Below, piece by piece: positions 23,729 to 29,920 of a stretch of 64,000 nucleotides of DNA. This DNA comes from Lachnospiraceae bacterium (lineage in GTDB: Bacteria > Bacillota > Clostridia > Lachnospirales > Lachnospiraceae): positions 1 through 64,000 of the forward strand of contig JAILGA010000035.1 of NCBI GenBank assembly GCA_024697225.1. Direction: 5' to 3'. The notes under the pieces were generated by a model. That model had not been told where the DNA came from. It searched no databases and saw only the letters and a program-made list of their open reading frames with translations. Numbering within the stretch: position 1 is the stretch's first letter; each line of letters opens with the position of its first letter. Both the position numbers and the translations under genes were made by a program.

Positions 23729-23932
23729 ATGGAGCATATCGTTATCGGATTGATACTCGCTCTGATCGTGGCAGGGATCATCGTGGCCGTGATGGTCGCG
23801 CAGATGAAGCCCGTCGCACAGAAGCACGAGGCATCGGATTACGTCAAAGATGAGGACGTAAAGATACTTGACAGCAGGGATGAATATGTCCGCACGGACG
23901 TTTCAAGACGCAAGATAGAAAAGAAGGACTGA
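23729..23932 (+). CDS. Small single-TM hypothetical protein
   Basis: 67 aa, N-terminal TM helix, charged tail; in the gap between two well-supported genes. Confidence 0.6.
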   Translation: MEHIVIGLILALIVAGIIVAVMVAQMKPVAQKHEASDYVKDEDVKILDSRDEYVRTDVSRRKIEKKD

Positions 23933-23938
23933 CGGGCG

Positions 23939-24637
23939 ATGGAAATCGGTGAAGTAGTACAGGAACTGTTAAACGGCGAAAAAACGGCAATACCGATCAA
24001 TCCCGGCTTCGGACCGGAGGGCTTCTTTGACATAAGCAAGTCGGTGGTGGTCTCCTGGATCGTGATGGCCTTTCTGATGATATTTACACTCATCATGACA
24101 GCCGGACTCCGCACCCATAACATATCAAAGAGGCAGCTCATCATAGAGACCGCCGTTGTCAAACTGCAGGATCTCATAGGAAGCGGACTTGGAGAGCACG
24201 GACGCGAGTACGTATCATGGCTCCTCACGGTTCTGCTGTATCTCGGAGTCTGCAATATTTCGGGACTCTTCGGATTTACTCCTCCAACCATGGATCTCAA
24301 TGTAACAGCCGCTCTGGCCATAACCAGCATAGTGCTGGTACAGGTCGCGAGCATCAGGAAAAAAGGCGGTATCGGCTGGCTGAAATCCTTTGCCAAACCA
24401 ATGGCCGTCATAGCGCCCATGAACATCATGGAACTTGCGATCAAGCCGCTGTCGCTGTGTATGCGGCTCTTCGGCAATATTCTCGCCGCCACCGTGATCA
24501 TGGAAATGCTCAAGACGATAATCCCGGTATTTGTTCCGGCGCTTCTGAGCATCTACTTCGATCTTTTCGACGGCCTGCTTCAGGCATATGTTTTTGTGTT
24601 TCTTACTTCCCTGTATATCGGGGAGGCTGTGGAATAG
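23939..24637 (+). CDS. atpB: F0F1 ATP synthase subunit A
   Basis: LGVCNISGLFGFTPPTMDLN; MELAIKPLSLCMRLFGNILAATVIMEML. Confidence 0.95.
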   Translation: MEIGEVVQELLNGEKTAIPINPGFGPEGFFDISKSVVVSWIVMAFLMIFTLIMTAGLRTHNISKRQLIIETAVVKLQDLIGSGLGEHGREYVSWLLTVLLYLGVCNISGLFGFTPPTMDLNVTAALAITSIVLVQVASIRKKGGIGWLKSFAKPMAVIAPMNIMELAIKPLSLCMRLFGNILAATVIMEMLKTIIPVFVPALLSIYFDLFDGLLQAYVFVFLTSLYIGEAVE

Positions 24638-24653: not shown

Positions 24654-24884
<231 letters not shown>

Positions 24885-24901: not shown

Positions 24902-25396
24902 GTGTTAAAGGTAAACATGAGCATAGTATACACGATCATCAATCTGCTGATCCTGTATGCTTTCTTTCGCAAATTCCTCTTCGGAAGGGTAAATAAGATC
25001 CTCCAGGAGCGCAGGGATGCGATCGAAAACGCGGGAAGAGATCTCGATGCCGAGATAACGAAGACCCGTGCCGAGAAGGCGGAATATGAGACAAAGCTAA
25101 AAGAGCTCGAGACCGAAAAGGAGAGCACGCTTGCCGAGTGGAGAGGCAGGGGCTTTGAGGAGCATAACCGCATAGTCGAGGAGGCTAAGGTGGAAGCCAG
25201 CAGGATAATCGCCGAAGCCAGAAAGAGTGCCGATATGGAATCTGCCATCGCACTTGAGAAGAATCAGAAGGCTCTCAAGGATATCGTGGTCGATGCCGCA
25301 GGTTATATATCTGTTCAAAAGGCGGATCCCGAATCCGAGGGAGCGCTCTATGATACGTTTATACGTGAACTCAACAGATCGGAGGAGGCTTCATGA
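24902..25396 (+). CDS. atpF: F0F1 ATP synthase subunit B
   Basis: N-terminal TM helix then long charged coiled coil; between atpE and atpA. Confidence 0.92.
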
Positions 25397-27160
25397 GCTC
25401 TTCGGCCGACAGAGGAGAAAAAGTATTAAAGCGTCCCGCTCAGGCGGACCTGATATACGCGATCAAGCCGCCGTCACCGGCGCAGCTTGAGCGCATAAGA
25501 TCGACGCTGTGCAGGCGGTACAGGCTTGATACATTAAGGATAGATACGATCCGGGATCCCTCTCTGGGATCCGGTTTTATCGTAAAATTCGGAAACAAGG
25601 AATTTGACTTCAGTGAGAGCGGCCGTGAGAATCAGTTAAGGCAGTTCATTGCTGACATAAAGGGCGGAAACGACGAGGAGTTTATCGCCGCCTTAAAGGG
25701 CGGCATAGAGGATTTCTCGCTGCACGCAAGAGTCGAGGAGATAGGAACGGTCTCCTGGGTGGGTGACGGTATTGCCATCGTTGACGGTCTGGCCGAGGTA
25801 TTCTACGGCGAGATACTGATCTTTGATGACGGCACCCGCGGCATGGCTCAGGATCTGAGGGAAAATGAGACCGGCTGCATCCTTTTCGGCAGTGAGCAGA
25901 ACATCTCGGTCGGAATGAAGGTCGCAAGGACCAGAAAACAGGCGGGTATACCTGTCGGCAAACAGTTTCTCGGGAGAGTGATAAACTCCTTGGGCGATCC
26001 TATTGACGGAGAGGACGAGATACAGGCAGAGGGTTATATGCCGGTTGAGCAGAAGGCCCCGGGCATAATAGACAGACGCTCGGTCTGTGAGCCATTAGAG
26101 ACCGGCATTCTTTCGATAGATACGATGTTCCCCATAGGAAAGGGGCAGAGAGAGCTTATTATAGGCGACAGGCAGACAGGTAAGACGTCCATAGCCACTG
26201 ACACGATACTCAACCAGAAGGGCAAGAATGTCATATGTATTTATGTCGCCATCGGACAGAAGGTTTCAACGGTCGCGAGACTGGCAAGGATGCTGAGAGA
26301 CGCAGGTGCAATGGAATATACCATCATCGTCTCCTCCACCGCTGCGGATCCCGCGCCGCTGCAGTACATCGCCCCTTACGCCGGCTGTGCTCTGGGCGAA
26401 TTCTTCATGAAGCAGGGCTCCGATGTACTTATAGTCTATGACGATCTTTCCAAGCACGCAGTGGCATACAGATCAATGAGTCTTCTTCTTGAGCGTCCGC
26501 CCGGGCGTGAGGCATATCCCGGAGATGTGTTCTATCTGCACTCAAGACTTCTTGAGCGCGCTGCCAAGCTCTCCGATGCCAACGGAGGCGGCTCGATGAC
26601 CGCGCTGCCTATCATCGAGACCCAGGCCGGAGATGTGTCGGCTTACATCCCCACCAACGTGATATCAATAACCGACGGACAGATCTTCCTTGAAAGCGAT
26701 CTGTTCTTCGAGGGAATGCGTCCCGCTGTCAACGTGGGTCTGTCGGTTTCCCGTGTGGGAAGCGCTGCGCAGACCAGAGCCATGAAGAAGGCCGCGGGCT
26801 CCATAAGGATAGACCTTGCACAGTACAGGGAAATGGCGGTGTTTACGCAGTTTTCATCAGATCTGGATGAAGCGACGAAAAAACAGCTCGCTCACGGACA
26901 GGCGCTGATGGAGCTTCTGAAGCAGCCGCTCGGTCATCCGCTCACCCAGGCGGAGATGGTTGTCACCCTTGTGTGCGCCAACAGCGGATATTTTGACGAT
27001 ATCGGGACCAAGCAGGTCAAGGATGAACAGAACAGACTGCTTGAAAATATGAAGCAGCGCAGACTGGATATCATACAGCAGATCTCCGGCGGTGCGGGAC
27101 TCGATGATGTACTGAAGAATCAGATACTTGAGGCTGCCGCTGTAATAAAGAAGGAAAGAG

Positions 27161-27177
<17 letters not shown>
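25393..27177 (+). CDS. atpA: F0F1 ATP synthase subunit alpha with N-terminal delta-C-terminal-domain-like extension
   Basis: [38 protein letters not shown] begins the normal alpha core; preceding ~90 aa includes [60 protein letters not shown]. Confidence 0.93.

Positions 27178-29920
<2,743 letters not shown>

What the first reader, a model, noticed from the sequence alone, without database searches (positions are those of the whole stretch)
25393..27177. Apparent delta(C-terminal domain)-alpha fusion in the F-type ATP synthase; atpH absent
The operon runs atpB-atpE-atpF-[atpA]-atpG-atpD-atpC with no atpH between atpF and atpA. The 594-aa alpha has an extra ~90 aa at its N-terminus, with [59 protein letters not shown]. 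This resembles the delta/OSCP C-terminal domain pattern (TEEQ..RL...L....G..V.....VDPSLIGG.VVRIGDK.IDGSVRG.L..L). The normal alpha core starts only at [15 protein letters not shown]. The N-terminal six-helix domain of delta, which normally docks on alpha N-termini, is missing; covalent fusion would replace that docking. Because F1 has three alpha subunits, three delta-CTD copies per enzyme are implied, against one in standard enzymes, which would change peripheral-stalk architecture. ATGA overlap with atpF and an uninterrupted frame argue against a sequencing error. The delta fusion I know of is b-delta in mycobacteria, not delta-alpha.
Basis: partly seen in the sequence, partly recalled or inferred. 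Interest (0 to 1): 0.82.

Follow-up and report, generated by a model that had tools for sequence, protein, structure and literature searches.

The report
Stalk-anchor domain fused to ATP synthase alpha
In this rumen bacterium (a Butyrivibrio) the part of the ATP-making enzyme that anchors its side stalk is built into each of the three alpha subunits instead of being one separate subunit, the same layout that engineers used in 2025 to give an ATP synthase up to three side stalks, so nature may already make such low-voltage ATP synthases.

Summary
AtpA (25393-27177, 594 aa) is an intact fusion of the delta/OSCP C-terminal domain (CTD) to a complete alpha subunit; the delta N-terminal domain (NTD) and a separate atpH are absent. 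Pfam OSCP matches over its cut-off, and a model of the domain finds 24 solved chains at E<=0.001, all from ATP synthases. It is no error: the fusion is in 55 of 61 Butyrivibrio-genus genomes (34 of 35 good ones), in a B-E-F-A-G-D-C operon, under purifying selection. A separate delta elsewhere in the genus belongs to a second, Na+-type operon; one 99%-complete member with the fusion gave no other OSCP match.

The layout is not wholly new. Ueno et al. 2025 engineered it (up to three stalks and a subunits, H+/ATP 5.8) and noted natural cases in Acidaminococcus fermentans and two other UniProt entries. New here: Butyrivibrio and about 20 bacterial families; full-length delta-alpha intermediates; repeated NTD loss; stand-alone CTD-only deltas; deltas with two or three tandem CTDs. 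I found no internal start that would give CTD-free alpha, so three stalk sites per F1 are expected. Whether several stalks assemble is inferred, not shown.

The parts
25393..27177 (+). atpA: fused delta-CTD/alpha subunit, 594 aa
   Evidence: Pfam OSCP + ATP-synt_ab_N + ATP-synt_ab + ATP-synt_ab_C in one ORF; conserved in 55/61 genus genomes
25432..25662 (+). delta/OSCP C-terminal domain (about residues 14-90), the b-dimer binding domain
   Evidence: Pfam OSCP residues 21-83 = profile 107-169/172, over cut-off; Foldseek top matches are ATP-synthase chains, delta/OSCP where named; HMM hits to delta chains E to 6e-14
25663..25731 (+). short linker plus the retained alpha N-terminal helix (about residues 91-113, containing [21 protein letters not shown])
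   Evidence: aligned with N-termini of unfused alphas; within 2 residues of the engineered junction in PDB 9jc1 chain I
25732..27138 (+). alpha core: beta-barrel, nucleotide-binding and C-terminal domains
   Evidence: Pfam PF02874, PF00006, PF00306
23939..24637 (+). atpB (a subunit, 232 aa)
   Evidence: Pfam ATP-synt_A 2.6e-39; NF004486 over cut-off
24666..24884 (+). atpE (c subunit, 72 aa), H+-type ion site (GIGIG ... AEATAIYG; no Na+ ligands)
   Evidence: Pfam ATP-synt_C; alignment of c subunits
24902..25396 (+). atpF (b subunit, 164 aa, no delta domain attached); stop overlaps atpA start as ATGA
   Evidence: Pfam ATP-synt_B 2.9e-11, no OSCP; sequence
27161..28093 (+). atpG (gamma, 310 aa)
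   Evidence: Pfam ATP-synt 5.5e-83
28056..29486 (+). atpD (beta; listed start may be too far upstream)
   Evidence: TIGR01039 793 bits, residues 16-475
29483..29920 (+). atpC (epsilon, 145 aa)
   Evidence: Pfam ATP-synt_DE and ATP-synt_DE_N

Best explanation
The gene encodes a deltaDeltaN-alpha fusion subunit of an H+-type F1Fo ATP synthase. Every alpha carries its own delta CTD, so F1 presents three equivalent binding sites for the b2 peripheral stalk, and the delta NTD that normally sits on the three-fold axis and limits the enzyme to one stalk is gone. Most likely more than one b2-a unit binds per enzyme (up to three), which raises the H+/ATP ratio and lets the cell make ATP at a low proton-motive force. 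Shown here: fusion, loss of the NTD, no detected second delta source, no internal start, selection, distribution. Inferred from the engineered enzyme of Ueno et al. 2025: several stalks and the higher H+/ATP ratio.
For: OSCP domain by HMM and fold. Residues 20-181 align to the engineered PS3 fusion 9jc1_I with only a 2-residue difference at the junction. Nearly fixed in the genus, 55/61, 34 of 35 good genomes; CTD dN/dS 0.05-0.20 in pairs where dS was neither saturated nor below 0.03. No in-frame start in the window linker, and no enrichment in 73 fused genes (22/73 against 32% background). G008, 99% complete, gave one OSCP match, inside alpha. The NTD was lost repeatedly after full delta-alpha fusion, in starred sister pairs L175/L178, L170/L181, L176/L185, L180/L177. 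Other lineages carry extra or NTD-free CTDs by different routes: stand-alone CTD-only delta (L267-L270, L296) and delta with two or three tandem CTDs (genus g372, plus L266). The engineered protein makes up to three stalks with three a subunits, H+/ATP 5.8 (PMC12229609).
Against: No stoichiometry, structure or activity of any natural deltaDeltaN-alpha enzyme is known to me. One stalk would suffice for a working enzyme. Full-length delta-alpha fusions also exist (14 in the tree set), where three NTDs cannot all sit on the axis, so fusion alone does not prove several stalks. In the window's genome no Ech large subunit was found, so the source of the proton gradient is unclear.
Confidence: 0.55

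Rival explanations
1. Single-stalk fusion: the CTD is tethered to alpha for stability or assembly, one of the three CTDs holds the only b2 stalk and the other two are idle.
For: Adequate for function; full-length delta-alpha fusions persist in many Lachnospiraceae, where at most one NTD can occupy the axis. The atpH/atpA junction often overlaps by 4 nt in relatives, so fusion needs only a small frame change.
Against: Two idle CTDs per enzyme would be a permanent cost. Tandem duplication or triplication of the CTD on a single delta has no obvious use in a one-stalk enzyme.
Confidence: 0.36
2. Mixed subunits: CTD-free alpha is also made (internal translation start or proteolysis), so the assembled enzyme has one fusion and two plain alphas and ordinary stoichiometry.
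For: Some relatives have an internal ATG with a weak ribosome-binding match near the alpha N-helix.
Against: No in-frame ATG/GTG/TTG in the window linker; overall frequency equals background (22/73 against 32%). Proteolysis was not tested.
Confidence: 0.06
3. A delta from the genus's second F-type operon serves this enzyme in trans, the fused CTD being secondary.
For: Many genus genomes carry a full-length delta in a second operon.
Against: The window's genome (89% complete) and G008 (99% complete) gave no full-length delta; fused and standard enzymes belong to distant branches.
Confidence: 0.03

Closest known systems
Engineered Bacillus PS3 deltaDeltaN-alpha FoF1 (Ueno et al. 2025, PMC12229609; PDB 9jc1)
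   Same: Same domain order, same loss of the delta NTD, junction within 2 residues.
   Different: Artificial; also lacks the epsilon C-terminal domain. Its several stalks and H+/ATP of 5.8 were measured; here nothing was measured, and epsilon keeps both domains.
Natural deltaDeltaN-alpha fusion in Acidaminococcus fermentans (and UniProt G4Q3K6, A0A1I2C5T3), noted in the Discussion of Ueno et al. 2025
   Same: Same architecture: delta-alpha gene fusion with the NTD missing.
   Different: Different organisms. Only three cases named there; here a conserved feature of a whole genus plus about 20 families, with intermediates and alternative routes. I could not fetch their sequences to compare.
Mycobacterial b-delta subunit
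   Same: A delta fused to another stator subunit.
   Different: Fused to b rather than alpha; the solved chains are about 445 aa with the CTD near their C-terminus. One copy per enzyme (general knowledge).
N-type (alternate) F1Fo ATPase
   Same: From general knowledge: no separate delta gene.
   Different: The window genes score below the alternate-ATPase cut-offs (alpha 594 against 750.5, a 119 against 302) while a, alpha and beta pass ordinary F-type cut-offs.

Membership tests
F-type ATP synthase | alpha, beta, gamma, epsilon, a, b, c encoded together | tested here: met
   Pfam matches for all seven
F-type ATP synthase | separate delta subunit with NTD and CTD (atpH) | tested here: not met
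   no atpH in the operon; only the CTD present, inside alpha
deltaDeltaN-alpha fusion enzymes (Ueno et al. 2025) | delta CTD fused to the alpha N-terminus in one ORF | tested here: met
deltaDeltaN-alpha fusion enzymes (Ueno et al. 2025) | delta N-terminal six-helix domain absent | tested here: met
   match begins at OSCP position 107 of 172; no other OSCP match in the assembly
deltaDeltaN-alpha fusion enzymes (Ueno et al. 2025) | more than one peripheral stalk and a subunit per enzyme | not testable with these tools
   needs biochemistry or cryo-EM
OSCP/delta family (PF00213) | match over the curated cut-off | tested here: met
   28.4 bits, cut-off 22.3
OSCP/delta family, full-length equivalog TIGR01145 | full-length score over cut-off | tested here: not met
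   19.8 bits, cut-off 57.5, CTD only
N-type (alternate) ATPase | matches to alternate F1Fo models over cut-off | tested here: not met
   TIGR03324 594.3 < 750.5; TIGR03306 119.2 < 302.1; TIGR03305 609.3 < 752
Mycobacterial b-delta | delta domain in the b polypeptide | tested here: not met
   AtpF 164 aa, no OSCP match

The most novel reading that the evidence does not exclude
Natural multi-stalk, multi-a-subunit ATP synthases are widespread in anaerobic Bacillota and were reached several times by different genetic routes (CTD fused to alpha, CTD-only free delta, delta with two or three tandem CTDs), as an adaptation to making ATP at low ion-motive force.
Probability: 0.42. Interest if true: 0.9.

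Novelty: new member of a known kind. Interest (0 to 1): 0.68.

Why it matters
ATP synthases are taken to have one peripheral stalk and one a subunit, with the H+/ATP ratio set by c-ring size. A 2025 engineering paper showed that this limit can be broken by exactly the rearrangement found here, and said that natural examples await verification. This finding points to cultured rumen Butyrivibrio isolates in which it can be tested, and to an evolutionary series (separate delta, full fusion, repeated NTD loss, plus two other routes to extra or NTD-free CTDs) that suggests selection for extra stalk sites. If true, energy budgets of fermenting gut bacteria would need revising.

Tried and rejected
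Frameshift, assembly or annotation artefact: rejected (same fusion in 55/61 genus genomes; CTD dN/dS 0.05-0.20 where measurable). Internal start giving CTD-free alpha: no enrichment. N-type ATPase and b-delta: rejected by model scores and by AtpF itself. Single origin of the fusion: the tree with all fused alphas held as one clade is rejected, p-AU 6e-50 (LG+G4, quick tree), with at least 8 fused/free changes. Link between fusion and H+-type c rings: 79 of 79 fused against 20 of 49 separate are H+-like, but hardly any independent contrasts exist, so no claim. Full-length AlphaFold model of the fused alpha was mediocre (mean pLDDT 64); the domain alone was modelled instead (77). First dN/dS run had a strand error and is superseded. 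The literature searched is open-access only; no other report of a natural delta-alpha fusion was found.

Full report
What is there. The window carries one F-type ATP synthase operon on the + strand: atpB 23939-24637, atpE 24666-24884, atpF 24902-25396, atpA 25393-27177, atpG 27161-28093, atpD 28056-29486, atpC 29483-29920. AtpA is 594 aa. Pfam assigns residues 21-83 to OSCP (positions 107-169 of 172, over the cut-off), then ATP-synt_ab_N, ATP-synt_ab and ATP-synt_ab_C; the alpha equivalog TIGR00962 starts at residue 94. The N-terminal domain is therefore an added delta C-terminal domain in front of a complete alpha, including the alpha N-terminal helix. No atpH is present, and no other OSCP match exists in the window's genome, which is 89% complete.

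Fold. A model of the domain built from the window and 48 relatives (mean pLDDT 77, beta-alpha-beta-beta-beta-alpha) was compared with the PDB: 24 matches have E<=0.001, all from ATP synthases and led by the delta chain of Bacillus PS3. A profile of the same family hits solved delta/OSCP chains at E to 6e-14. One chain aligns through both domains: 9jc1 chain I, the engineered delta-alpha fusion of Ueno et al., residues 20-181 of the window protein against 7-170, with a difference of 2 residues at the junction.

Whose it is. Matching contigs are named Butyrivibrio (B. hungatei, B. proteoclasticus, many isolates and rumen assemblies) or Lachnospiraceae. In the window's genus 55 of 61 genomes, 34 of 35 good ones, carry the domain in this form (one of them, G1088, in a short frame, and G010 at a contig end, were not followed up there). 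In the genus loci read in detail the order is B-E-F-A-G-D-C without atpH where the contig allows. The fused CTD is under purifying selection (dN/dS 0.05-0.20 in pairs where dS was neither saturated nor below 0.03).

Second enzymes. Many genus genomes hold a second, complete F-type operon with a full-length delta (L063-L066), whose c subunit has Glu at position 32 and Thr at 66, like the two-carboxylate Na+ site of Fusobacterium nucleatum (Glu32, Glu65, Ser66; PMC3692424). The window's genome and G008, G015 and G034 lack it in their assemblies but have alpha/beta-family pairs of the size of a V/A-type ATPase. All 79 fused enzymes examined have H+-like c subunits. The window's genome has Rnf and no detected Ech large subunit. 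G008, 99% complete, gave a single OSCP match, inside alpha.

Distribution and history. Reading operons from genomes of the same order, class and phylum, I found six states: separate delta; full delta (NTD and CTD) fused to alpha, 671-756 aa; a few with a shortened NTD region; CTD only fused to alpha, about 580-620 aa; a stand-alone CTD-only delta of 77-92 aa in the atpH position (L267-L270, L296); and a delta with two or three tandem CTDs (L266, L271). In genus g372 all 7 genomes have delta frames of 265-353 aa; two or three CTDs were seen directly in L271, L287, L288 and L290. Fusions were read in 20 families by the search tool's codes (f1, f8, f17, f28, f31, f35, f36, f39-f43, f49, f52, f65, f73, f75, f76, f78, f217). 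A tree of alpha core plus beta (118 rows, LG+G4, quick) needs at least 8 fused/free changes, rejects all fused alphas as one clade (p-AU 6e-50), and pairs full with CTD-only or shortened fusions on starred branches four times (L175/L178, L170/L181, L176/L185, L180/L177). Since a CTD-only fusion is unlikely to regain its NTD, this reads as repeated NTD loss after fusion. Gains and losses are not formally separated by the counts.

How it most likely works. In the standard enzyme the delta NTD sits on the three-fold axis of F1 and the CTD holds the b dimer. Ueno et al. removed the NTD, fused the CTD to alpha, and obtained up to three stalks, each with an a subunit; a:gamma rose 2.2-fold, H+/ATP went from 3.0 to 5.8, and ATP was made at a pmf where the wild type could not (PMC12229609). 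The window protein has the same layout. A dual product (fusion plus plain alpha from an internal start) would restore one CTD per enzyme; there is no in-frame start codon in the window linker, and across 73 fused genes such sites are no commoner than elsewhere in the gene (22 of 73 against 32%). So three CTDs per F1 are expected. That several stalks are really bound is inferred. The independent appearance of tandem CTDs on a single delta, and of free CTD-only deltas, is the best sequence-level hint that extra stalk sites are selected for; it is indirect.

What is known and what is new. The same paper notes that Acidaminococcus fermentans and two other UniProt entries have natural deltaDeltaN-alpha fusions and that verification is awaited. 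The window enzyme is thus a further member of that kind. I found no earlier report for Butyrivibrio, for the breadth in Bacillota, for full-length intermediates, for CTD-only deltas or for tandem-CTD deltas, in an open-access library only. The 2015 survey of rumen butyrivibrios lists all F0F1 subunits as present in all 62 genomes and does not contain the phrase delta subunit (PMC4478896).

Limits. Genomes in the survey are unnamed apart, and the class and order samples are subsets. Tree support is from a quick search with a simple model and some long rows. The domain boundaries given are accurate to a few residues.

Noticed in passing
L271:2237-3283 (+) and genus g372 loci L287, L288, L290: Delta subunits with one NTD and two or three tandem CTDs (265-353 aa frames) in one genus; Pfam finds 3 OSCP stretches in L271. 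The middle CTD of the three is the most degenerate.
   Followed up: partly
L266:2571-3356 (+): Delta with two CTDs (261 aa) in another family, with a Na+-like c subunit; the three other genomes of its genus gave no match.
   Followed up: partly
L267:4307-4540 (+), L268:5598-5876 (-), L269:3215-3451 (+), L270:439-705 (+), L296: Stand-alone CTD-only delta genes of 77-92 aa in the atpH position next to an ordinary-length alpha: NTD lost without fusion.
   Followed up: partly
L233:4897-7257 (+), L235:4915-7299 (+): Gamma and beta form one open frame (786 and 794 aa) with no stop between them in two genomes of different families; an ATG with a purine-rich stretch upstream lies at the beta start. 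A rotor-stator fusion would block rotation unless beta is also started internally or the product is cut.
   Followed up: partly
L186-L195, L199, L227-L236, L240, L241, L243 (atpE): A clade of fused-alpha operons has c subunits of about 106-142 aa with a signal-peptide-like N-terminal extension and a VFIETAIIYAL-type ion-site helix.
   Followed up: no
L209-L211, L215, L220, L221, L264, L283, L285 (atpE): Operons with c subunits of about 180-278 aa; L283 and L285 read as duplicated hairpins. Most also have a single-hairpin c. In the last hairpin Gln replaces the ion-binding Glu (AVAQTTGIYAL).
   Followed up: no
L219:3659-5680 (+): An alpha of 673 aa with a long C-terminal extension, next to a separate delta.
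   Followed up: no
G000:C92 (L279) and G008:C8:34102-36285: V/A-type ATPase-like pairs in genomes that lack the standard F-type operon; in G008 the pair lies about 10 kb from the fused operon. The L279 proteolipid has LLPGTQG, INQAK and VETYA motifs that suggest Na+.
   Followed up: partly
window 23729-23932 (+): Small membrane-like ORF (67 aa) directly upstream of atpB, with counterparts in the two closest relatives (L040, L062); no Pfam match.
   Followed up: no
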